This document shows, one piece after another, positions 1,588-27,029 of a stretch of 64,000 nucleotides of DNA. Each line of letters starts with the position of its first letter. The first letter of the stretch is position 1. Source of the DNA: Verrucomicrobiota bacterium. Its GTDB lineage: Bacteria > Verrucomicrobiota > Verrucomicrobiia > Opitutales > Opitutaceae. A program made the position numbers and the translations under genes. The notes beneath the pieces are model-generated. The model had not been told where the DNA came from. It searched no databases and saw only the letters and a program-made list of their open reading frames with translations. The stretch is from positions 1 through 64,000 of the forward strand of contig QNAI01000004.1 in assembly GCA_003641745.1 (NCBI GenBank). Reading direction: 5' to 3'.

Positions 1588-3159
1588 ATGAACGCGGATA
1601 ACGTGAAAAGACTCTGCGCGATTCCGGCGGCGGCGCTGTTCGGAATGCTCCTGCTGTCCAGTTGCACCACCGTGGGGCCGGATTTTGAAGAACCGGAAGC
1701 TCCCGTAGCGGAGGATTGGTTGGAGTCCGACGATGCCAGGGTCAACACCTCCACCACGACTTACCGGGATTGGTGGGATGTCTTTCATGACCCGGTCCTG
1801 TCGAAGCTGATCGAGACCGCCTACCAGCAAAACCTCACTCTCCAGATCGCGGGCCTGCGCATCATGGAAGCGAGAGCACAACTGGGTTTCGCCACCGGCC
1901 TGCAATACCCTCAATCCCAAAGTGTCAACGCCAGTTACGTCGTGAGCAAGAGCAGCCGCAACGCACCACCGCTGGCCAATCTTCCGGATGATATCAGGGA
2001 ATCCGCGAGCCAGAGCGTCGACTTCTGGGGTGTCAGTTTTGACGCTGCCTGGGAAGCGGACGTGTGGGGCAAATTCCAGCGCGGAATGGAAGCAGCCGAT
2101 GCCAACCTCGCCGCCAGAACACTCGACTACGATTCGGTGCTGGTCATGCTGAGCGGGGATGTGGCAGCGCTTTACACCACGATTCGCACTTTTGGTGAGC
2201 GCCTCTCCTACGCCCGTGAAAACGTCGGCCTGCAGCAGGAATCTCTGGACCTCGCGGAGACGCGATATCAACTGGGAGCGACCTCGGAACTGGATGTCGA
2301 GCAGGCCAAGGCACTGCTGTACAACACCGAAGCTCTGATCCCCATTTTGGAACTGGGCCTGAGCCGGACGAAGAATGTCTTGAGTCAGCTATTGGGGTTG
2401 CCACCCAGCGATCTGGAATACCTGTTGGGAGGCACCGGAGGCATTCCGGCGGCACCCCCCACTGTGGCTGTGGGTATCCCCGCAGACCTGATCCGGCGGC
2501 GGCCGGATGTGCGCGCCGCGGAGATGGCCGCGGCGGCCCAGAGCGCGGCTATCGGGATCAACCAGGCAGACCTCTACCCGCATTTCGGTCTGGCCGGTTC
2601 CATCGGTCTGGCCGGAGACACCTTCGCGGATCAATTCGCATCCGGCAGCGGTACCGGCTTCTTTACCCCGTTCGTCAAGTGGGACATTTTCAACTACGGA
2701 CGCATCCGCAACAACGTCCGCATCCAGGATGCACGGTTCGAGCAACTCGTCGTCGCCTACCAGAACACGGCCCTGGCCGCGGCCAGGGAAGTCCAAGACG
2801 GGCTGCAGGGCTTTCTGCGGACTCGGGAACAGGTAGGCTTTCTCACGGAAGCCGTTGGCGCCTCGGACCGGGCCGCTCAGCTCGCCCTGGTCCAGTACCA
2901 GCAAGGAGCGACCGACTATACCCGGGTGTTGAACACACAGACCTCTCTGCTGCAGCAGCAGGATGCCCTCACCGAGGCGCGGGGCCAGGTGGTCTCCAAC
3001 CTGGTGGCAACCTACAAAGCGCTCGGGGGCGGTTGGCAGATTCGGGAAGGCCACGACTTCATCAAGTCGACCACGGCGGAGAGCATGGCCGCGCGAACAA
3101 ACTGGGGCGAAATGCTGGCCGCACCATCCGAGACGCCGGAAGCCCCACCTGAGCCTTAG
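1588..3159 (+). CDS. NodT-family outer-membrane efflux lipoprotein
   Basis: TolC-like outer-membrane factor of 523 aa, the exit duct of the efflux locus. It has a lipoprotein signal with lipobox LSSC (Cys26) followed by the family hallmark TTVGPDF. The body has two OEP repeats, with long helical stretches and the conserved RRRPDVRAAE segment at the start of the second repeat, and the late motif YKALGGGW. It starts 7 bases after the adaptor gene, so the three genes form an operon. The stop codon is remarkable: TAG is made from two bases of the target duplication plus the first base of the adjoining MITE. Reconstructing the empty site gives TAA. The protein is otherwise complete, because the insertion fell exactly at the stop. 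Confidence 0.92.
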   Translation: MNADNVKRLCAIPAAALFGMLLLSSCTTVGPDFEEPEAPVAEDWLESDDARVNTSTTTYRDWWDVFHDPVLSKLIETAYQQNLTLQIAGLRIMEARAQLGFATGLQYPQSQSVNASYVVSKSSRNAPPLANLPDDIRESASQSVDFWGVSFDAAWEADVWGKFQRGMEAADANLAARTLDYDSVLVMLSGDVAALYTTIRTFGERLSYARENVGLQQESLDLAETRYQLGATSELDVEQAKALLYNTEALIPILELGLSRTKNVLSQLLGLPPSDLEYLLGGTGGIPAAPPTVAVGIPADLIRRRPDVRAAEMAAAAQSAAIGINQADLYPHFGLAGSIGLAGDTFADQFASGSGTGFFTPFVKWDIFNYGRIRNNVRIQDARFEQLVVAYQNTALAAAREVQDGLQGFLRTREQVGFLTEAVGASDRAAQLALVQYQQGATDYTRVLNTQTSLLQQQDALTEARGQVVSNLVATYKALGGGWQIREGHDFIKSTTAESMAARTNWGEMLAAPSETPEAPPEP

Positions 3160-3435
3160 AGGCTGTCTTAAAAGTGATGAAAACTGTCGTTTGGCCAGAA
3201 AAGGCCTCGCCGCAAGGCACATCCTAAATGGGGTATCCCCATAGGGCTATCCCTTTCGGATGGAACGCCGCGCCGTGGTCGTTTCTGTCCAAACCCTTCG
3301 GGCAGAGTTGCTTTAGGTCGTGGCCGGCGTTGGGCACGAGGACCAAGGCCTTTGGGCCTGGGCGCCTCGCGCCTGCCTTGCCCAGCACCCCAAATCAATC
3401 TCTGCGACATGCTTCAGCACTTTTAAGACAGCCTC
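3159..3435 (+). mobile_element. MITE copy 1 (277 bp, TIR GAGGCTGTCTTAAAAGTG)
   Basis: A non-coding element bounded by perfect 18-bp terminal inverted repeats GAGGCTGTCTTAAAAGTG, with imperfect pairing continuing about 13 bases inward. It is flanked by a 3-bp duplication TTA (3156-3158 and 3436-3438). It matches the reverse complement of 26573-26860 almost base for base, apart from a few substitutions and two small indels. No transposase reading frame is present, so it must be mobilised in trans. The 3-bp TNA-type duplication is reminiscent of some IS5-group elements, but I cannot assign the parent from sequence alone. At its centre is the palindrome GGGGTATCCCC (3230-3240), which is different in the other copy. 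Confidence 0.88.
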
Positions 3436-3508: not shown

Positions 3509-4576
3509 TCAGTACCGGTAGTCGCGCGCCGTGTGATAGAGCGCCAGAACATTCTCGATCGGAACGTCCGGCTGAACGGAGTTGGAGGCGGCGACGATGT
3601 AACCTCCATCCGATCCCAGGATATTGATCCGTTTCAGAACTTCCCGCTCAACTTCATCCGGGGTTCCGAAGGGCAGCAGTTTCTGGGTGTCCACTCCGCC
3701 ATAGAATGAGATTCTTCCCCTGAACAGCCTGATCAGGTTCTCCGGGTCCATTCCCGGAGTGTCCGGTTGAATCGGATCCAGAAGATCCAGACCCATCTCG
3801 ATCAGGTCCTCGATGATCGGGACGACCGATCCGTCCGTATGATAGCGGGTTTTGAGTCCCATCTGCCTGAAGGGCTCAATCAGGTCTCTCTGAAACGGGC
3901 TTATCCATTCCCGCCAGAGCTCCGGCGAAAACATCATCCCGGTCTGCATGCCCACGTCGCCGGCACTCCAGACTATGTCAATCTCCCCTTCCGACTCCTC
4001 CAAAGCCCGCATGGTGATCTCTTTGCACAGCGCCGTGACCCGGCCAAGAATCGCCTCAACCATCTCCGGTTGCTCGATCAGATCCGCCAGGAATTTTTCC
4101 AGCCCCCGCATGGCCCAGCCAATCTCAAGAAAAGATCCCATGGAAAATACGATCGCCTTCGGTTCCTCTTGATTGAAGTTCCCAATGGCGTCCCGCACAT
4201 GGGCGACCGACAACCAGTCGACCGTCGGCCAATCGTACTCCTCGATATCCCTTACGGTTTCAGCCTGTGCCAGGGGATGCACCACCGGATCGTGGTAACG
4301 ACACCAATCGTTGCCCACGGACCTCCATCCGATGCCCCACATGTCCGTGCCGCCCGTACTGTAACCGAACGCTCCGGAGAAGGTATCCGGACCGACATAG
4401 CGGGCCGAAACATAGCGCATGTCCGCTCCGAAATAACGAAGCAGATCCTCACCCGACTCCAAGCCAAGATGCCTGAGCAACCCCGAGGTCGTCTCCTCTG
4501 TTCCGAAGTAATTCAGGGGCGGCCGATCGGGACGTCGATGGCTCAGGGCACACATCACCCGCTCTCGTGAAGTCAT
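3509..4576 (-). CDS. Uroporphyrinogen decarboxylase-family protein (not HemE)
   Basis: TIM-barrel protein of 355 aa in the UroD/MtaA superfamily. Visible family segments are the opening MTSRERVMCALSHRRPDRPP, a loop YHTDGSVVP (His246, Asp248) at the place where Mta-type methyltransferases carry a metal-binding HxC, and the late block GGYIVAASNSVQPDVP. The HemE substrate-binding signature RQAGRYMPEY is absent, so heme synthesis is unlikely. Relatives are corrinoid-dependent methyltransferases or uncharacterised proteins of carbohydrate-degrading bacteria. The gene lies 67 bases downstream of the DUF6807 gene on the same strand, so the two may be cotranscribed and share a catabolic role. The substrate cannot be inferred. 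Confidence 0.85.
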   Translation of the reverse strand: MTSRERVMCALSHRRPDRPPLNYFGTEETTSGLLRHLGLESGEDLLRYFGADMRYVSARYVGPDTFSGAFGYSTGGTDMWGIGWRSVGNDWCRYHDPVVHPLAQAETVRDIEEYDWPTVDWLSVAHVRDAIGNFNQEEPKAIVFSMGSFLEIGWAMRGLEKFLADLIEQPEMVEAILGRVTALCKEITMRALEESEGEIDIVWSAGDVGMQTGMMFSPELWREWISPFQRDLIEPFRQMGLKTRYHTDGSVVPIIEDLIEMGLDLLDPIQPDTPGMDPENLIRLFRGRISFYGGVDTQKLLPFGTPDEVEREVLKRINILGSDGGYIVAASNSVQPDVPIENVLALYHTARDYRY

Positions 4577-4643
4577 TGCTCTGATTTGCTTCTTGATTGC
4601 CGCTCAAGTCAAGGGCTCCGGGCCACTTCGGCCGAAGAGGTAC

Positions 4644-5537
4644 TCACCGCCAATCTTCGAACGGCAACCAGGAAGAGAACCGCTCGTATTCCTCCGCGAT
4701 CTTTTCCGGGACGGCTTTCCCTGCATGAATGAAATGCCGGTAGGCCAGGCGAAGCTTCCCGCCCTTCTTCAGATCGAGGGGTTCATCCCTGAGAACTGAG
4801 GCATTCAGGCCGTGCATATAGTGTTCGGTCCAGGTCACCCAGGGCGTCGGGTGCCGGAGATTCGACGGGTGATCCATGAGCGTGAGTCCGCCCCAATGCT
4901 GGAAATTGTGCCGGTCCGGAATGCCGTCCAGCCACCAGCTGTAGTCTGTCCACCGCGCCCGGGTACGATGGGAATCCAGCCAAGCGGTCTCACCCTCGCT
5001 GTTGAGCAACTCCGGCTCGACCGTGCGCACGAAGCGGACCGTCATGCCGCCATAGCCTCCCCATTCGACATGCCGATCGAGGTGGACATCCACCAGGGGG
5101 GTGAAGACGAATTCCCAATCGATGACCCGCCGTCTGCCTTGATCCCGCTGGGTGTAGGTGACCCGTCGTTCGTCCCGGATGAGCGGTTCCCCCTCCGGCG
5201 TAATCCACTCGATCACATTGGTGAGACGGGCACGATCTTCCTGCGGATCCTCAATCGTCATGGAGACATTTCGAGTCGTCGCCCATGGATGACCGCTCCC
5301 CTCCTGGTCCCAGGCATTGAGCCCGTTGATGTATTTCCAGGAGAAGTACATTCCGTAATGCCACGGATGATCACCCGGATTGACCATGGTCACCGGATGC
5401 CCGCCCGGCAGATTGACCGGATGGCAATAGGGATAGAGATCGACCTCGCCATAGCGATAGGTGAACAGGGGTTCCCTGCCGTCGCGAACCGTGACGGAAC
5501 GGTTGAACTCGTGGGTGATTCGAAGTTTCGAACTCAT
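4644..5537 (-). CDS. DUF6807 (PmoA-like) family protein
   Basis: 297-aa protein without a signal peptide. It matches the family often labelled PmoA-like or DUF6807 in Verrucomicrobiota, Planctomycetota and Bacteroidota. Recognisable segments are LYPYCHPVNLPGGHPVT, the His/Trp-rich NPGDHPWHYGMYFSW and WTDYSWWLDG. The family resembles sugar-recognising beta-sandwich proteins and has nothing to do with methane oxidation in these bacteria despite the name. The first gene of a probable two-gene unit with the UroD-family gene. A reasonable guess is a role in sugar or glycoside catabolism, but no reaction is established. Confidence 0.8.
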   Translation of the reverse strand: MSSKLRITHEFNRSVTVRDGREPLFTYRYGEVDLYPYCHPVNLPGGHPVTMVNPGDHPWHYGMYFSWKYINGLNAWDQEGSGHPWATTRNVSMTIEDPQEDRARLTNVIEWITPEGEPLIRDERRVTYTQRDQGRRRVIDWEFVFTPLVDVHLDRHVEWGGYGGMTVRFVRTVEPELLNSEGETAWLDSHRTRARWTDYSWWLDGIPDRHNFQHWGGLTLMDHPSNLRHPTPWVTWTEHYMHGLNASVLRDEPLDLKKGGKLRLAYRHFIHAGKAVPEKIAEEYERFSSWLPFEDWR

Positions 5538-5672
5538 CTGTTGCGGTGGTTGACGGTGGTTCTACAGGACCGCCCATACCATCGAGTGCCCGGCCAGGAT
5601 CAAGATTCCAAAACACGAAGAGCGGTTGACGCAACCCTCTCCAATCCGGAGGATGTCCTCAACCAATTTCCC

Positions 5673-16426: not shown

Positions 16427-17467
16427 TCAGGCGCCCGGGAGATGAGTTTGCTCGAACTGGTTCAGAAACAGCTCGAGACCGGCATCCATGGGCACGCGCG
16501 GCATGTATTGCAGATCCTGTTTCGCCCGTTCGATGGAGAACCAGTGGTCTTTGGCCAGTTCCGAAGCCACAAAGCGGGTCATCGGCGGTTCTCCCCGAAG
16601 TCTCAAGGCCGCCCAGAGGCACTCGCACCCCGCTCCCAGGCGGCGAGCCGTCCGCAGACTGATCGTTTTCTCCACCTTCGGGATCCCGAGTCTGCTCAGC
16701 AGATCATTGATCCAGGTCCAGAGCTCAACCGGTTCACCGTTGGTGATGAAGTAGGCACGACCGCCCCCGCAATCAGGACGCTCGACAAGTGTTTGTTCCG
16801 CGAGCAGGTGAGCGTCCACCACATTGTCAATATAGGTGAGGTCGACCCGGTTCCGACCCGAACCCACGATGCGCAACCGACCCCTCCTCGCTCGTTCGAC
16901 CACCCGTGGAACGAGATTGGTATCGCCCGGACCCCAGACAAGGTGTGGCCGGAGTGCGACCGTGCGCAACCCCGCCCGGTCATCCGCCTCGAGCACGGCT
17001 GCTTCGGCAATCGCCTTGGTTGCCGGGTAGTGAGCGGGGATCTGCTCGCCGTAAGGAAGCGATTCGTCGACACCCGCGAGATCTGAACCGGTGAAAATGA
17101 CACTGGGTGAACTCGTAAAAACGAGCCGCGGCACCTCAAAATCCCGGCACCCGTTGATGATCGCCTGAGTGCCCTCAACATTGACCGCCCGGAAACCTGC
17201 ATAGCGCCCCCATAGACCCACCTTGGCGGCAACATGAAATACCGTCGCCATCCCTTGACAAGCCTCACGAACCGCACCGGTGTCCCCAAGGTCAATCCGG
17301 ATGCATTCGGCACCCCTCGCCTGCAAACCCGGCACCTGTGACCGGCAGATGACCCGCACCTTTCGTCCCTGATCCAGGAGGCGACGTGCGATGGAGCCAC
17401 CGACGAAACCACTCCCCCCGGTTACGAGGACGGGGGCGTCGTCATTTGAGGAGAAACCTGCCATCAC
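16427..17467 (-). CDS. oleD: OleD: 2-alkyl-3-ketoalkanoic acid reductase
   Basis: NADPH-dependent reductase of 346 aa in the 3-beta-HSD/extended SDR family. It has the Rossmann motif VTGGSGFVGGSI near the N-terminus and the catalytic YxxxK in HYPATKAIAEA. OleD reduces the 2-alkyl-3-keto acid made by OleA to the beta-hydroxy acid. Identification rests on the sequence class and on direct coupling to OleC: its ATG overlaps the oleC TGA (4 bases). The ole pathway makes long-chain internal olefins by head-to-head condensation of fatty acyl-CoA. OleA and OleB are not encoded in this window. Confidence 0.88.
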   Translation of the reverse strand: MMAGFSSNDDAPVLVTGGSGFVGGSIARRLLDQGRKVRVICRSQVPGLQARGAECIRIDLGDTGAVREACQGMATVFHVAAKVGLWGRYAGFRAVNVEGTQAIINGCRDFEVPRLVFTSSPSVIFTGSDLAGVDESLPYGEQIPAHYPATKAIAEAAVLEADDRAGLRTVALRPHLVWGPGDTNLVPRVVERARRGRLRIVGSGRNRVDLTYIDNVVDAHLLAEQTLVERPDCGGGRAYFITNGEPVELWTWINDLLSRLGIPKVEKTISLRTARRLGAGCECLWAALRLRGEPPMTRFVASELAKDHWFSIERAKQDLQYMPRVPMDAGLELFLNQFEQTHLPGA

Positions 17468-19152
17468 TGGAAATCATTACCGCCGGCGCACGGCGGCGAT
17501 AGGATTGGTCTGCGGCCTTTGAAAACCCCGGCCAGTTTCAGGCGATTGATCTTTGCATTGTGGCGGACGTCGACGGGGAATTGCTTGTGGAAGAAAAAGT
17601 GACGGATGCTCGCAGTGGGACGGTGCATTCGGCCAAGTGCGGCAAGCTCGTCCACCAGTCGTTTTTTTCCTCTATCCGTTTCGGTCATCCGGCCCCGCAC
17701 GAGTTCGATGACAATGGCCGGTACTGTTGTGCCCCTATCCTGCCAGGCGATCAATGCGGTTCGTCGCACGCCCGGGTGTGGGTTGAAGATCGCTTCGCAG
17801 CAATCGGTGTAGAACACCCCATCCGCCGTCCGGACCGCCTCCGCCTGTCGCCCACAGAACCACAGACGGCCATCAGAATCAAGGTATCCAAGGTCACCCA
17901 TGCGATGCCAGATCCGGTCACCATCCCGTATCTTGGCCTGTGCGGTGGCTTCGGGCAGTTGGTCGTAGCTCCGGGTCACGGTTGGCCCGGTCGCGATGAT
18001 CTCGCCGGTATGATCGGGAGCACACACGATCGCCTCGTCGATTGATTCGATCGGCAAAGGGCTCGGCTCGATAACGCGCACCTCGACCCCGCGCAGAGGC
18101 CGGCCGACACAGGTTCCCGCGCCCGACTGCGTCCGCTCCGCCGTCTCCCCAATCACCGTTTCATCGTCGATGCTCGAAACCGGGAGCACTTCAGTGGCCC
18201 CGTAGGGTGTATGGGTGTGCCCGTTGGGGATGATTTCTCGAAAGTCCTGCATGAGGCGGGGAGGCACCGGGGCGCCCGCCATCAGGATCCGGCGCAGTGT
18301 CGGCAGCGTTGATCCTGTTTTGATACAATGATCCGCGATCTTCTTCCACAGGACCGGTGATCCGAAGCTGCTGGTTACCGAGCACTGCCGAATCGCCTGC
18401 ACGATCATTGACGGATCAACCGTCGCCGGCCGGCTCGGGTTGATCTCCGGAACCACAGTCGTCATTCCGAGGGCCGGGTTGAAGAGGGCGAAGATCGGAA
18501 GCATCGGCAGATCGATTTCACCCGGTTCGATCGAGTAGGTTTCGCGAATGGCCGAGACCTGGGCTTCAAACATGCCGTGCTCATAACAGACCCCCTTGGC
18601 GGGGCCGGTCGAACCGGAAGTGAAGAGAACTGCCGCCAGGTCACGCGCCGAGGTGGGTGCAACCGGATAAGGTAACTGATCGGCGCTGTTGCCAATCCGA
18701 CGGTCGCTCCTTACCCGGAGACGAATCCCGACTGAACGGAAACGAAGAAAGAACACCCGCGAAAGGACAACGGCTGTTCCTATCCCCACCAGCGCCCGAG
18801 GTTTCGATCGCTGGACGCAGCGAAGGAATCCCGGGAGACCCATCCCGGGATCGATCACAATCGGAACCGCCCCTACTTTGAAAAGAGCGAAACAGATTCC
18901 GATGAGCGAAAGACCGGGGCGCACCATGAGCAGGACCCGTGTGCCGCGCTCGATCCCTGCCGCTGCGAAACGAAAGGCCCAGGCATCGGCTTCCGCGTTC
19001 AGTTCCAACGCACTCTGGCAGAGATAATTGATCGAACCATCCGGCAGTCGGCCCCGAGGAACCAGCAATGCCGGGAAGTCTGGTTGTGACGCAGCACGCT
19101 CCGGGAGATACCGTGCCACATTGGCCGGTGGCCCCTCGCTCATTTGCCGCAA
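17464..19152 (-). CDS. oleC: OleC: olefin beta-lactone synthetase (ANL superfamily)
   Basis: Acyl-adenylate-forming enzyme of 562 aa. It has the AMP-binding P-loop LFTSGSTGPAKGVCYEHG, the A5 motif TPYGATEVLP and a C-terminal ANL lid. The N-terminal segment DPGMGLPGFLRCVQRSKPRALVG is typical of OleC rather than ordinary acyl-CoA ligases. OleC activates the OleD product and closes a beta-lactone, which OleB decarboxylates to the olefin. It lies 7 bases after a small lipoprotein gene and overlaps oleD by 4 bases, giving a lipoprotein-oleC-oleD operon. Local annotation as a long-chain fatty-acid CoA ligase would be the common mistake. Confidence 0.88.
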   Translation of the reverse strand: MRQMSEGPPANVARYLPERAASQPDFPALLVPRGRLPDGSINYLCQSALELNAEADAWAFRFAAAGIERGTRVLLMVRPGLSLIGICFALFKVGAVPIVIDPGMGLPGFLRCVQRSKPRALVGIGTAVVLSRVFFLRFRSVGIRLRVRSDRRIGNSADQLPYPVAPTSARDLAAVLFTSGSTGPAKGVCYEHGMFEAQVSAIRETYSIEPGEIDLPMLPIFALFNPALGMTTVVPEINPSRPATVDPSMIVQAIRQCSVTSSFGSPVLWKKIADHCIKTGSTLPTLRRILMAGAPVPPRLMQDFREIIPNGHTHTPYGATEVLPVSSIDDETVIGETAERTQSGAGTCVGRPLRGVEVRVIEPSPLPIESIDEAIVCAPDHTGEIIATGPTVTRSYDQLPEATAQAKIRDGDRIWHRMGDLGYLDSDGRLWFCGRQAEAVRTADGVFYTDCCEAIFNPHPGVRRTALIAWQDRGTTVPAIVIELVRGRMTETDRGKKRLVDELAALGRMHRPTASIRHFFFHKQFPVDVRHNAKINRLKLAGVFKGRRPILSPPCAGGNDFQ

Positions 19153-22623: not shown

Positions 22624-24504
22624 ATGAAAACTCCGCATTCACTTCTTTCGACGTCAGTTCTGGTCGCTCTTCTCGCACACCCGGCAGTGTCTCCGGCCAA
22701 GCCGATCCCGGTGGAGGACCTTTTCGGTGAATCCGCCGCCACCGCCTTCAGCCTGTCCCCGGACGGAACCTATTTCGCTCTGATCGGGCGGGACCCGAAA
22801 GGCAAGCGTTCCCTCTATGCCCGGAGCCTGGAGACCGATGATACCCAGGCCTGGACCATCGACGGCGGCGGGAATTCGGTCGCCAGCTATGCCTGGATCA
22901 GCAATGAGAGGCTCGCCTACCGGGTCAGCCGCCACGACTACTATTTCCAGGGCCTCTACTCAGTCGAACGGGACAAGAAAACCATCCACCGGCTCGATTT
23001 TGGCGCCGTCAATCTGATCGAAGACCCATTGATCGACCGGGAATCACTCCTCGTCCTGCGTCGACGCGGTGATGGCGAAATAAGGCCTTACCACTCTGAA
23101 CTTGTGGAGATCAATTCAACGACCGGTCTTCCGATAGAGACGGTCTGGACCTTCAAGGGCACACCCTTGGGGATCGAAATCGATCTCAATGGCCAGGTCC
23201 GCCTCTTGAAGACCTATTATAAGAACGAGCATTTTTTCATGTATCGGGTCGATTCCGAAGATCCGTGGACCCGGCTCGATCTGCCTGAGGATGTGAATAT
23301 CCTGGGGTTTGGCCCGAGTGGAAAGGTTGTCCTGGTCTCCGACTATTTCGGCCGGGACCGCTCCGCCCTCTATCGTTACGATATCACCCGCCAGGAACCC
23401 GGCGATCCGATCTATGAGGATCCGGTCTATGATCTTCACACCTCGGCGGCAAAAATCCTCGATGCGGAGCGGAAGGTTCCCCTGGGATTCCGATACCAGG
23501 CGGACCACGAGAAAACGATCTGGTTCTCAAAGGAGATAAAGCAGATTCAGGAGATCCTGAATGAGCACAACCCGGACACCATCAACCGTATTGTAAGCGC
23601 CAATCTATCCGCGGGCCGTTTCCTCGTTCTATGTTACAGCGACCGGCAGCCGTCGATCTACAGACTGCTCGACTACGGGCAGCGCCGCATCACCGATCTC
23701 TGGCCCACCCGTCCCCAGATCGATCCCGAGAAGATGTCGCCGGTCGAATCCTTTGAGTTCGTCAGCCGCGATGCCCTCCCACTCCATGGGTACCTGACCC
23801 GCCCGGTCACCGGCAAGGCGCCCTTCCCCACCGTGGTCGTGGTCCACGGTGGACCATGGGCACGGGATACCTGGGGATTCGATCCGGAGGTTCAATTCCT
23901 GGCCAGCCGGGGCTACGCGGTCCTTCAGGTCAATTACCGCGGATCCAGCGGGTTCGGCCGCCGCATCAGCCTGGAGCTCAAAGCCGACCTGAAGGGAATG
24001 AATGACGATATCGAGGACGCCGTGCGCTGGGCCATCGCGGAAGGTCACACCGACGAAGACCGGGTCGGCATCATGGGCGGGAGCTTCGGCGGCTACGCCG
24101 CTCTGTATGGGGTCGCTTTCAAGCCGGAACTCTACAAATGCGCCATCGGCAATGTGGGCGTCTATGACTGGCCGATGCATATCAGCGAGAAGAAAGGTAG
24201 TTTTTCCGATTATGCCTTCGACTTCTACCGGAAACTCTGGGGCGAAGATTACCGGGAAAAACTGGAAGCGCTCTCCCCCTACTTCCACGTCGACCAGATC
24301 GTGGCACCCGTCTTCATCGCCTACGGTCGTGACGATCGCCGGGTGAAGCCCGTTCAATCCAAACGGATGATCGCCGCCCTCAAGAAACACGGGGTGGAGC
24401 ACGAGGTCTTTTCAAAATCCTGGGAGGGTCACGGATTTTTCGACGACGAGGTCCAGTTCAAATACTACCGCAAAATCGAAGCCTTCCTGAAGAAGAATCT
24501 ATGA
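22624..24504 (+). CDS. S9 family (prolyl oligopeptidase-like) serine peptidase
   Basis: Peptidase of 626 aa with an N-terminal signal peptide (about 1-23, ending SPAKPIPVEDL). It has a beta-propeller-like region (about 25-370) followed by an alpha/beta-hydrolase domain. The catalytic triad is intact: Ser487 in MGGSFGGYA, Asp570 or 571 in YGRDDRRV, and His603 in WEGHGFFDD. Probably an exported aminopeptidase or oligopeptidase of the S9C type. A paralogue without a triad follows 43 bases downstream. The start is preceded by CCCTCCGAGAG, a sequence also found after the hairpin repeats elsewhere in the window. Confidence 0.9.
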   Translation: MKTPHSLLSTSVLVALLAHPAVSPAKPIPVEDLFGESAATAFSLSPDGTYFALIGRDPKGKRSLYARSLETDDTQAWTIDGGGNSVASYAWISNERLAYRVSRHDYYFQGLYSVERDKKTIHRLDFGAVNLIEDPLIDRESLLVLRRRGDGEIRPYHSELVEINSTTGLPIETVWTFKGTPLGIEIDLNGQVRLLKTYYKNEHFFMYRVDSEDPWTRLDLPEDVNILGFGPSGKVVLVSDYFGRDRSALYRYDITRQEPGDPIYEDPVYDLHTSAAKILDAERKVPLGFRYQADHEKTIWFSKEIKQIQEILNEHNPDTINRIVSANLSAGRFLVLCYSDRQPSIYRLLDYGQRRITDLWPTRPQIDPEKMSPVESFEFVSRDALPLHGYLTRPVTGKAPFPTVVVVHGGPWARDTWGFDPEVQFLASRGYAVLQVNYRGSSGFGRRISLELKADLKGMNDDIEDAVRWAIAEGHTDEDRVGIMGGSFGGYAALYGVAFKPELYKCAIGNVGVYDWPMHISEKKGSFSDYAFDFYRKLWGEDYREKLEALSPYFHVDQIVAPVFIAYGRDDRRVKPVQSKRMIAALKKHGVEHEVFSKSWEGHGFFDDEVQFKYYRKIEAFLKKNL

Positions 24505-24547
24505 TTCAGGTCCGCCACCTCCCAACCCGAACGCGCGAATCCTCACC

Positions 24548-26572
24548 ATGAAACAACGTTTCTTCCTGATCATGATCACGACCCTGGGAATCCTGATCCC
24601 TTCCCTTGGCGCCGTCGGCAAGACGATCCCCGTCGCTGATCTCATCAATCGCGTGCCTGCCCAGAATTTCACACTGTCTCCGGATGGTGAATATCTGGCA
24701 TTCATGGGGCTGAATGCCGAGGGCAGGATGGCGCTGTACGCCCGGGATCTTGAATCCGGTGAGATTCATTCCTGGATTGGGTACGGTGACAGTTCCAAGC
24801 TCCTCGATTACTTCTGGGTCAGCCCCGAGCGGTTGGCTTATCAGACGACCGCCCCCGGGAATATTTCGGACAACACACGAGACTATATCGGGGTTTACTC
24901 GGTCAAGCGGGACAGCGCAAAGATCAACAAGCTGAACGATAAGAAAGAAAGAATGTTTCTGGTCGATCCGCTCGTCGATCGAGAGTCACTTCTCGTGGAG
25001 CGCAACTTCGGAATGATTAGCGAGAAGAGTCCGGCGACCCTGATCGAAATCGATCCGGTAAAAGGAAAGAAGCTTCGAACCCTTGCGACTTTCACCGAAG
25101 ATCCAGGCCTTTACCACAGAGACCTTCAGTGTTTTGTGGATCCTTCAGGGGATCTGCGGGTTCTCCTGACCCTTGGCGATGATTCGAGCAAGTGGACCTA
25201 TCGATCGTCTCCGGATGCCGAATGGATTCCCCTTGGCTCATTTGAGGACTTCAGGGTGCTCGGTCTCGATCCATCCGGAAACGGCGCCTTGGTGACCGGA
25301 CACTTCGGTCAGGATCGGTCCGGTCTCTACCGCTACGACCTGGAAAGCCAATCAGTCGGTCCACTGGTATTCAGCGACCCCACCTATGACCTTCGCCCGA
25401 GCGCTTTTCTGGTCAATGACGTCCGGGGCCAACCACTGGGCCTGCGCTATGTCACCGATCGCCAGAGAACCATCTGGTTCTCGGCGAATATGCAGCAAAT
25501 CCAACAATTGCTCGATCAGAAGATCCCCGATTGCGTAAACAGTATCGTGGGCGCTGATACAACCCACGGTCGTTTTCTGATAGAGAGCACCAGCGACCGG
25601 CAACCCTCCCTGTACAAATTTCTCGATCTGGAGAAACGATCGCTGACCACCGTTTTCGTAACCAACCCCTCGATCGATCCGACCGAAACCGCGAAAACGG
25701 ATACGATGAAGATCGAGTCCCGCGATGGTCTGAGCCTTGATGGATTCTTGACCCGTCCGATCGGCACGGATCCACCCTATCCAACCATCGTGGTTCCGAG
25801 AAGCAGCGCACGGAGCCGGGTAACCTGGGGATTCGATTCGCGGGTCCAGTTTTTCGCCAATCTCGGTTATGCCGTTCTGCAAATCAACAACCGTGGTTCA
25901 ATCGGGTACGGCAAGCACTTCTCAGAGGATCTCTTGGGTGACCTCGCCGGCATGAACAACGATCTGGAGGACTCGGTGAAGTGGGCGATTGAGCAGGGAC
26001 TGGTTGACCCCGACCACGTCGCAATCGCCGGGAGCAACTTCGGAGCTTTTGCCGCCATCTACGCGATCGCAACGAATCCCGAAATCTACCGGTGCGCGAT
26101 CGCTCTCAATGGTATCTACAATCTCAAAAAGCACATCGCCCGACAAGCCAGCAGAAAGGTTTCGGCAGGTTGGGGAGATATGCTCATCACGAGTTTCGGT
26201 GAGAATCCAAGCGATGATCTCGAATACGATCTTCGACTGCCTCCACCTGACACAGCTCTCGTCAATAGCCTCCGGGAGTTCCAAAGCGACAGATTCGAAG
26301 AGAATCTCCGCACTCTTTCGCCTCAAAATCTGACTGATGCCATACAATGCCCGGTACTTGCCGTCTATAATCCAAAGACGACGAGCAAACTGTTCGCGAA
26401 GCCGATGATCGCGGCTCTAAAGCGTTCGGGCGTGCGCCATGAGGTCTTTATGAGCACCGCCCGCATGGGCGGCCTGACGGTGGGAACCGATGACAAGACC
26501 ACACAGAAAGCTGCCTCCGATTCGGATCAGCTCTACGCCACCATCGAAGCATTTCTGAAGAAGAATCTCTGA
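24548..26572 (+). CDS. S9-like pseudopeptidase (catalytic triad lost)
   Basis: Paralogue of the upstream peptidase, 674 aa and full length, with a signal peptide (about 1-25) and the same domain order. Aligned with its neighbour, MGGSFGGYA becomes IAGSNFGAFA with Asn497 at the nucleophile position. The Asp segment YGRDDRRVKP becomes YNPKTTSKLF with no Asp. The His segment WEGHGFFDD becomes ARMGGLTVG with no His. All three catalytic residues are therefore missing, while the frame is free of stops and the fold-defining sequence is kept. This suggests a non-catalytic role such as binding, inhibition or partnering, or early decay. Cotranscribed with the active copy. Its TGA stop is the MITE target duplication. 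Confidence 0.88.
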   Translation: MKQRFFLIMITTLGILIPSLGAVGKTIPVADLINRVPAQNFTLSPDGEYLAFMGLNAEGRMALYARDLESGEIHSWIGYGDSSKLLDYFWVSPERLAYQTTAPGNISDNTRDYIGVYSVKRDSAKINKLNDKKERMFLVDPLVDRESLLVERNFGMISEKSPATLIEIDPVKGKKLRTLATFTEDPGLYHRDLQCFVDPSGDLRVLLTLGDDSSKWTYRSSPDAEWIPLGSFEDFRVLGLDPSGNGALVTGHFGQDRSGLYRYDLESQSVGPLVFSDPTYDLRPSAFLVNDVRGQPLGLRYVTDRQRTIWFSANMQQIQQLLDQKIPDCVNSIVGADTTHGRFLIESTSDRQPSLYKFLDLEKRSLTTVFVTNPSIDPTETAKTDTMKIESRDGLSLDGFLTRPIGTDPPYPTIVVPRSSARSRVTWGFDSRVQFFANLGYAVLQINNRGSIGYGKHFSEDLLGDLAGMNNDLEDSVKWAIEQGLVDPDHVAIAGSNFGAFAAIYAIATNPEIYRCAIALNGIYNLKKHIARQASRKVSAGWGDMLITSFGENPSDDLEYDLRLPPPDTALVNSLREFQSDRFEENLRTLSPQNLTDAIQCPVLAVYNPKTTSKLFAKPMIAALKRSGVRHEVFMSTARMGGLTVGTDDKTTQKAASDSDQLYATIEAFLKKNL

Positions 26573-26860
26573 GAGGCTGTCTTAAAAGTGCTGAAGCATG
26601 TCGCAGAGATTGATTTGGGGTGCTGGGCAAGGCAGGCGCGAGGTGCCCAGGCCCAAAGGCCTTGGTCCAAAGTGCCCAACGCCGGCCACGACCCAAAGCA
26701 ACTCTGCCCGAAGGGTTTGGCCAGAAACGACCCCGGCGCGGCGTTCCATCCGAAAGGGATAGCCCTATGGGTCCCGCGGCCGCGGGACCATTTAGGATGT
26801 GCCTTGCGGCGAGGCCTTTTCTGGCCAAACGACAGTTTTCATCACTTTTAAGACAGCCTC
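26573..26860 (-). mobile_element. MITE copy 2 (288 bp, inverted relative to copy 1)
   Basis: Same 18-bp perfect terminal repeats as copy 1 and nearly identical interior in opposite orientation. It is flanked by TGA at both ends (26570-26572 and 26861-26863), a 3-bp duplication. The first TGA is the stop codon of the S9-like pseudopeptidase gene. At the point where copy 1 has GGGGTATCCCC, this copy has a 20-bp perfect palindrome (26770-26789, GGTCCCGCGG with its reverse complement). No coding capacity. Confidence 0.88.
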
Positions 26861-27029
26861 TGAACGCCAGAGCTGGAAACCGCGTTCCACCTCCCGGCCA
26901 CCTGTGCCCGTATTGCCTTGAGTGGCATTGGGTGGCTGTGTCAGAAACCCGTGTGCTGAATCGATTTCAGGCATTCGAGTTGCGACTCCAGGGAACCTCC
27001 CGCCCCTCCACCACCAACTGAAACACCCC

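What the first reader, a model, noticed from the sequence alone, without database searches (positions are those of the whole stretch)
24548..26572. Full-length S9 pseudopeptidase next to its active paralogue
The second of two tandem S9-like genes lost Ser (now Asn497), Asp and His at the three catalytic sites, yet has no stop or frameshift and retains the signal peptide and domain layout. A full-length gene with complete triad loss is better explained by a non-catalytic role (binding, inhibition, dimer partner) than by recent decay.
Basis: partly seen in the sequence, partly recalled or inferred. Interest (0 to 1): 0.68.

Follow-up and report, generated by a model that had tools for sequence, protein, structure and literature searches.

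The report
Dead peptidase beside its active sister
In an uncultured Opitutaceae bacterium, a secreted protein-cutting enzyme sits next to a full-length copy of itself that has lost its entire cutting site but kept the rest of its shape, and related bacteria have made the same kind of dead copy several times over and keep it intact, which suggests these dead enzymes do useful work by binding rather than cutting.

Summary
Confirmed and extended. Window 24548-26572 encodes a full-length (674 aa) S9C-type prolyl-oligopeptidase homologue. The upstream tandem sister (22624-24504, 626 aa, 43% identical) has an intact site: HGGP, Ser487, Asp571, His603. In the second copy these became RSSA, Asn497, Pro609 (no acid nearby) and Gly641. 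Among columns conserved in 75 active relatives it keeps 26/27 in the propeller and 40/51 elsewhere in the hydrolase domain, but only 8/21 in catalytic motifs: a pseudoenzyme pattern, not decay. The family is Opitutaceae. No orthologue of this copy exists in 252 held family genomes; the pair is a private duplication. But triad loss recurs: the S9C tree needs 9 changes of triad state (7 well supported), including a genus-wide tandem pseudopeptidase in 7 genomes and a lone triad-less clade in another family. Unsaturated pairs of those triad-less genes have dN/dS 0.03-0.19, against 0.04-0.12 for active pairs, so dead S9C proteins here are under purifying selection. A hetero-oligomer with the sister is my leading guess, but lone and doubly dead cases show an active partner is not always needed.

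The parts
22624..24504 (+). Active sister: secreted S9C-type peptidase, 626 aa, intact HGGP / Ser487 / Asp571 / His603
24548..26572 (+). Pseudopeptidase: 674 aa S9C homologue without catalytic triad or oxyanion motif
24505..24547 (+). 43-bp gap between the two genes, no sigma-70-like promoter found (weak evidence for co-transcription)
23845..23856 (+). Active copy: HGGP oxyanion motif, residues 408-411
24082..24084 (+). Active copy: nucleophile Ser487 (GGSFGGY)
24334..24336 (+). Active copy: catalytic Asp571 (GRDDRRV)
24430..24432 (+). Active copy: catalytic His603 (EGHGF)
25799..25810 (+). Pseudo copy: RSSA (418-421) in place of HGGP
26036..26038 (+). Pseudo copy: Asn497 in place of the nucleophile Ser
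26372..26374 (+). Pseudo copy: Pro609 (YNPKTTSK) at the Asp site, no acid nearby
26468..26470 (+). Pseudo copy: Gly641 (ARMGGL) at the His site

Best explanation
The gene encodes a secreted (periplasmic or extracellular) pseudopeptidase. It arose by tandem duplication of an S9C peptidase gene in this lineage, lost the whole catalytic apparatus, and was kept because its folded propeller/hydrolase body does a non-catalytic job, i.e. it works by binding. Shown here: loss of every catalytic element, full-length frame, selective retention of non-catalytic conserved residues, sister relation to the active copy, and purifying selection on independent dead relatives. Inferred: it is made with its sister from one transcript and binds peptide or protein. 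The most likely route is a hetero-oligomer with the active sister that tunes or targets it (about 0.4 on its own); a stand-alone peptide-binding or decoy role is next (about 0.35). The confidence below is for a maintained, non-catalytic, binding protein, not for the hetero-oligomer step.
For: Triad and oxyanion motif lost, no stops. Of columns at least 75% conserved in 75 active relatives it keeps motif 8/21, other hydrolase 40/51 (sister 45/51) and propeller 26/27 (sister 26/27); Fisher p = 0.002 and 1e-5 for motif against each. Sisters in the tree with full support. 43-bp spacing. Independent triad-less S9C genes with dN/dS 0.03-0.19 at dS 1.2-3.6. Repeated pseudo/S9 tandem neighbours in other Opitutaceae: G020 and G315 (active + dead), G522, G526. 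The predicted hydrolase core still folds (pLDDT about 70-94), and the listed PDB matches are S9 family proteins.
Against: No orthologue of this gene in any held genome, so its own current selection cannot be measured. Its branch is about 1.5 times longer than the sister's (0.94-0.97 against 0.63-0.65). GC3 is lower (0.645 against 0.727), consistent with some relaxation or low expression. For the partner idea: the triad-less clade B and the f5-family genes mostly stand alone, and in four g21 genomes both tandem members are dead.
Confidence: 0.75

Rival explanations
1. A duplicate in decay: an S9C copy that lost function fairly recently and has not yet picked up a stop.
For: Faster branch and lower GC3 than the sister; single genome, no orthologue. 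One related tandem partner (G428) is cut by an in-frame TAG, so decay does happen in this family.
Against: Under neutrality more than 96 substitutions give P(no stop) below 0.05. All catalytic elements changed while 26/27 propeller and 40/51 other hydrolase conserved columns are kept, which random drift would not do.
Confidence: 0.12
2. A stand-alone binding protein (peptide scavenging, sensing or decoy) that needs no active partner.
For: Triad-less S9C genes that stand alone are conserved in g17, g37, g238 and in family f5, under purifying selection. In G425-G428 both members of the tandem are dead.
Against: Here the gene directly follows a close active sister, as in G020, G315 and G526.
Confidence: 0.35
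3. Residual or altered catalysis, for example using Ser496 next to the old nucleophile position.
For: Ser496 precedes Asn497.
Against: Oxyanion HGGP, Asp and His are all gone, with no acid or His at these positions.
Confidence: 0.03

Closest known systems
S9C acylaminoacyl peptidases (PF00326; e.g. PDB 1ve6 and 5l8s)
   Same: Propeller plus alpha/beta-hydrolase layout and sequence homology over the hydrolase domain
   Different: Catalytic Ser, Asp, His and HGGP absent
DPP6 / DPP10 (S9B pseudopeptidases, Kv4 channel subunits; PMC4350108)
   Same: S9 fold kept, nucleophile lost, retained for a binding role; DPP10 has Ser to Gly, as several Opitutales clades do
   Different: Animal S9B proteins (DPP10 keeps the Asp and His); here a bacterial secreted S9C-like protein with the whole site erased, beside an active sister
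Bacterial M16B neighbour-gene pairs (TTHA1264/TTHA1265, SPH2681/SPH2682; PMC12731061)
   Same: Paralogous partner chains, only one carrying the metal-binding motif in M16B heterodimers; TTHA1264/TTHA1265 are neighbouring genes
   Different: Unrelated metallopeptidase fold; a complex has not been shown here
CspC:CspA pseudoproteases of Clostridioides difficile (PMC12880746)
   Same: Bacterial pseudoproteases that work by binding and signalling
   Different: Spore-specific, a different protease fold (subtilisin-like, from general knowledge); no signalling partner known here

Membership tests
Peptidase family S9 (S9C-like) by homology | Significant match to PF00326 and homology to S9C enzymes | tested here: met
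   69 bits against cut-off 22.6, covering residues 427-532 only; 40-43% identity to a clear S9C-like sister; PDB matches to acylaminoacyl peptidases
Active S9 peptidase | Ser-Asp-His triad and HGGP oxyanion motif | tested here: not met
   Asn497, Pro609, Gly641, RSSA418-421
Pseudoenzyme (maintained non-catalytic homologue) | Selective loss at catalytic sites with other constraint retained | tested here: met
   8/21 motif against 40/51 and 26/27 elsewhere
Pseudoenzyme (maintained non-catalytic homologue) | Purifying selection measured among orthologues | tested here: inconclusive
   No orthologue of this gene held; measured only for independent triad-less relatives
Pseudogene | Stops, frameshifts or indiscriminate loss of conserved residues | tested here: not met
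DPP6/DPP10-type S9B pseudopeptidase | S9B sequence, membrane anchor, Kv4 binding | tested here: inconclusive
   Sequence is nearest to S9C-type enzymes and the S9C-like sister; anchor and Kv4 binding not tested, and Kv4 is not expected in bacteria
Active/inactive hetero-oligomer pair | Physical complex of the two gene products | not testable with these tools
   Only tandem arrangement shown

The most novel reading that the evidence does not exclude
Opitutaceae and their order repeatedly turn secreted S9C peptidases into conserved pseudopeptidases, often in tandem with an active or second dead sister, forming an unrecognised class of bacterial non-catalytic S9 partners or receptors comparable to DPP6/DPP10 in animals.
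Probability: 0.5. Interest if true: 0.7.

Novelty: new variant of a known kind. Interest (0 to 1): 0.52.

Why it matters
Non-catalytic S9 proteins are best known as animal channel subunits. A bacterial family that has produced them several times independently, with selection on the dead forms comparable to that on active enzymes and repeated tandem pairing with active sisters, gives a natural series for testing how a peptidase becomes a binding protein. In the papers I could search I found no report of this in bacteria; one survey of bacterial prolyl oligopeptidases reports high triad conservation (PMC4522959).

Tried and rejected
Codon-model branch dN/dS for the window pair: synonymous sites saturated, branch times at the bound, one partition failed outright, so those numbers are not used. 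Two genome-contig scans for named orthologues found only distant Pedobacter and Acetobacter S9 genes or nothing. Plasmid records: only remote S9 at 23-29%. Common origin with the triad-less f5 genes was tested and rejected (AU p = 0.00036). AlphaFold with a shallow six-sequence alignment gave a good hydrolase core but a poor propeller (mean pLDDT 46.7), so no pocket or interface claims are made. The IQ-TREE codon runs gave no omega in their output and were replaced by my own pairwise codon fits.

Full report
OBSERVATION. The two ORFs at 22624-24504 (626 aa) and 24548-26572 (674 aa) lie in tandem with a 43-bp gap. They align along their whole length at 40-43% identity. Pfam finds Peptidase_S9 in both, complete in the first and only residues 427-532 in the second. 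In the first copy the S9 catalytic elements are intact: HGGP 408-411, GGS487FGGY, GRDD571RRV, EGH603GF. In the second they read RSSA 418-421, GSN497FGAF, YNP609KTTSK and ARMG641GL. The Ser-to-Asp spacing is 112 residues, against 82-91 in the active relatives.

WHERE IT IS FROM. The genome (G000) is a 4.3-Mb draft in 307 contigs, 83% complete and 6% contaminated. A same-family genome, G003, is a single contig of 5,957,605 bp, which is the published size of Opitutus terrae CP001032 (PMC2613244). I therefore take the family to be Opitutaceae (Verrucomicrobiota). No other genome of the window's genus appeared in the searches.

THE PAIR IS PRIVATE. Searches of 57 relatives, 388 genomes of the phylum, all 252 held family genomes and 373 of the order found nothing closer to the second copy than its own sister (43%); other hits are 26-40% identical, the longer ones mostly 30-36%. 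In trees built without the motif columns the two copies are sisters with full support. So the dead copy arose by duplication in this lineage. Its branch is 0.94-0.97 against 0.63-0.65 for the sister.

NOT DECAY. I classed alignment columns by conservation in 75 active relatives. Among columns conserved in at least 75% of them, the dead copy keeps 26/27 in the propeller (sister 26/27), 40/51 in the rest of the hydrolase domain (sister 45/51, p = 0.29) and only 8/21 in the catalytic motifs (sister 21/21); Fisher p = 0.002 for motif against the rest of the hydrolase, 1e-5 for motif against propeller. A gene drifting freely would lose these at similar rates. About 3% of single changes in this gene make a stop, so more than 96 neutral substitutions (4.7%) give less than a 5% chance of an open frame. 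I conclude that constraint was lifted at the active site and kept elsewhere.

THE SAME HAPPENED AGAIN AND AGAIN. Checking triads in relatives turned up further triad-less full-length S9C genes. (a) Clade A, genus g21: seven genomes with Ser to Gly, no His and no Asp, downstream of an S9 partner; the partner is active in G020 and G315, and is itself triad-less in G425-G428 (G429's partner is cut by the contig end). (b) Clade B in g17, g37 and g238: partial losses (SDN, GDD, GDG, SDG, DDY, EDF and others), mostly with HGGP damaged, mostly lone. (c) G526: a triad-damaged copy (SDR) next to an active one; G522: DDV next to an active one. (d) Lone cases RDP (G029), ATM (G014) and SDQ (G557; a single change, possibly a sequencing error). 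(e) Family f5: three genomes with GNV, GKV, GSI. On the 107-row tree the triad state needs 9 changes, 7 forced by well-supported branches. An origin shared by the window copy and the f5 genes is rejected (AU p = 0.00036). The sample was drawn with pseudo-gene queries and tandem regions were favoured when fetching, so these are not frequencies.

SELECTION ON DEAD S9C PROTEINS. For pairs in which both members already lack a full triad, codon fits give omega 0.045 (L093/L094, dS 3.3), 0.054 (L119/L120, dS 2.2), 0.114 (f5 pair L211/L213, dS 1.6), 0.19 (L129/L214, dS 1.2) and 0.027 (L215/L217, dS 3.6). Active pairs at comparable distance give 0.039, 0.053 and 0.115. Pairs with dS far above 3 are saturated and their ratios should be ignored. 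Omega of 1 is rejected with twice the log-likelihood difference above 200 in each listed pair. For the window pair itself the fit is saturated and unusable.

MECHANISM. Shown: a dead site in a retained fold. The AlphaFold hydrolase core has pLDDT of about 70-94, the propeller is poorly predicted from a shallow alignment, and PDB matches are S9 proteins. Inferred: secretion (both N-termini look like signal peptides), co-expression (43-bp gap, no sigma-70-like promoter between them) and a binding role. A hetero-oligomer with the active sister is the leading guess by analogy with M16B neighbour pairs (PMC12731061) and DPP6/DPP10 (PMC4350108). The lone clades and the doubly dead pairs show that a live partner is not a general need, so a stand-alone binder stays close behind.

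NOVELTY. S9 pseudopeptidases are known in animals. I found no paper on recurrent, conserved ones in bacteria, and one survey stresses triad conservation in bacterial prolyl oligopeptidases (PMC4522959). The library holds open-access papers only, so this is a lead, not proof of absence. I rate it a new variant of a known kind.

Noticed in passing
window 26573-26862 (and 3158-3435, - strand): A 290-bp element with terminal inverted repeats (GAGGCTGTCTTAAAAG ... CTTTTAAGACAGCCTC) starts directly after the pseudopeptidase's stop codon. The genome has dozens of full or partial copies (about 15 near full length), so it looks like a MITE-type repeat family.
   Followed up: partly
L119 (G428:C51) 3629-5608, - strand: The triad-less upstream partner in G428 is interrupted by an in-frame TAG: a likely decaying member next to a conserved pseudopeptidase.
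   Followed up: partly
L120-L122 and L150-L153 (genus g21): Tandem S9C genes in which both members have lost the triad, the upstream one with Trp at the His position (SSW, NIW, QNW, GSW), so neither of the pair can be a classical peptidase.
   Followed up: partly
G000:C27:20219-21775 (L003, L065): A third S9C paralogue with intact triad elsewhere in the same genome, about 30% identical, in a different subclade.
   Followed up: yes
window 17464-19152, - strand: AMP-ligase of the OleC / olefin beta-lactone synthetase type (NCBIfam PRK09274 above cut-off), possible olefin biosynthesis; neighbours not checked.
   Followed up: no
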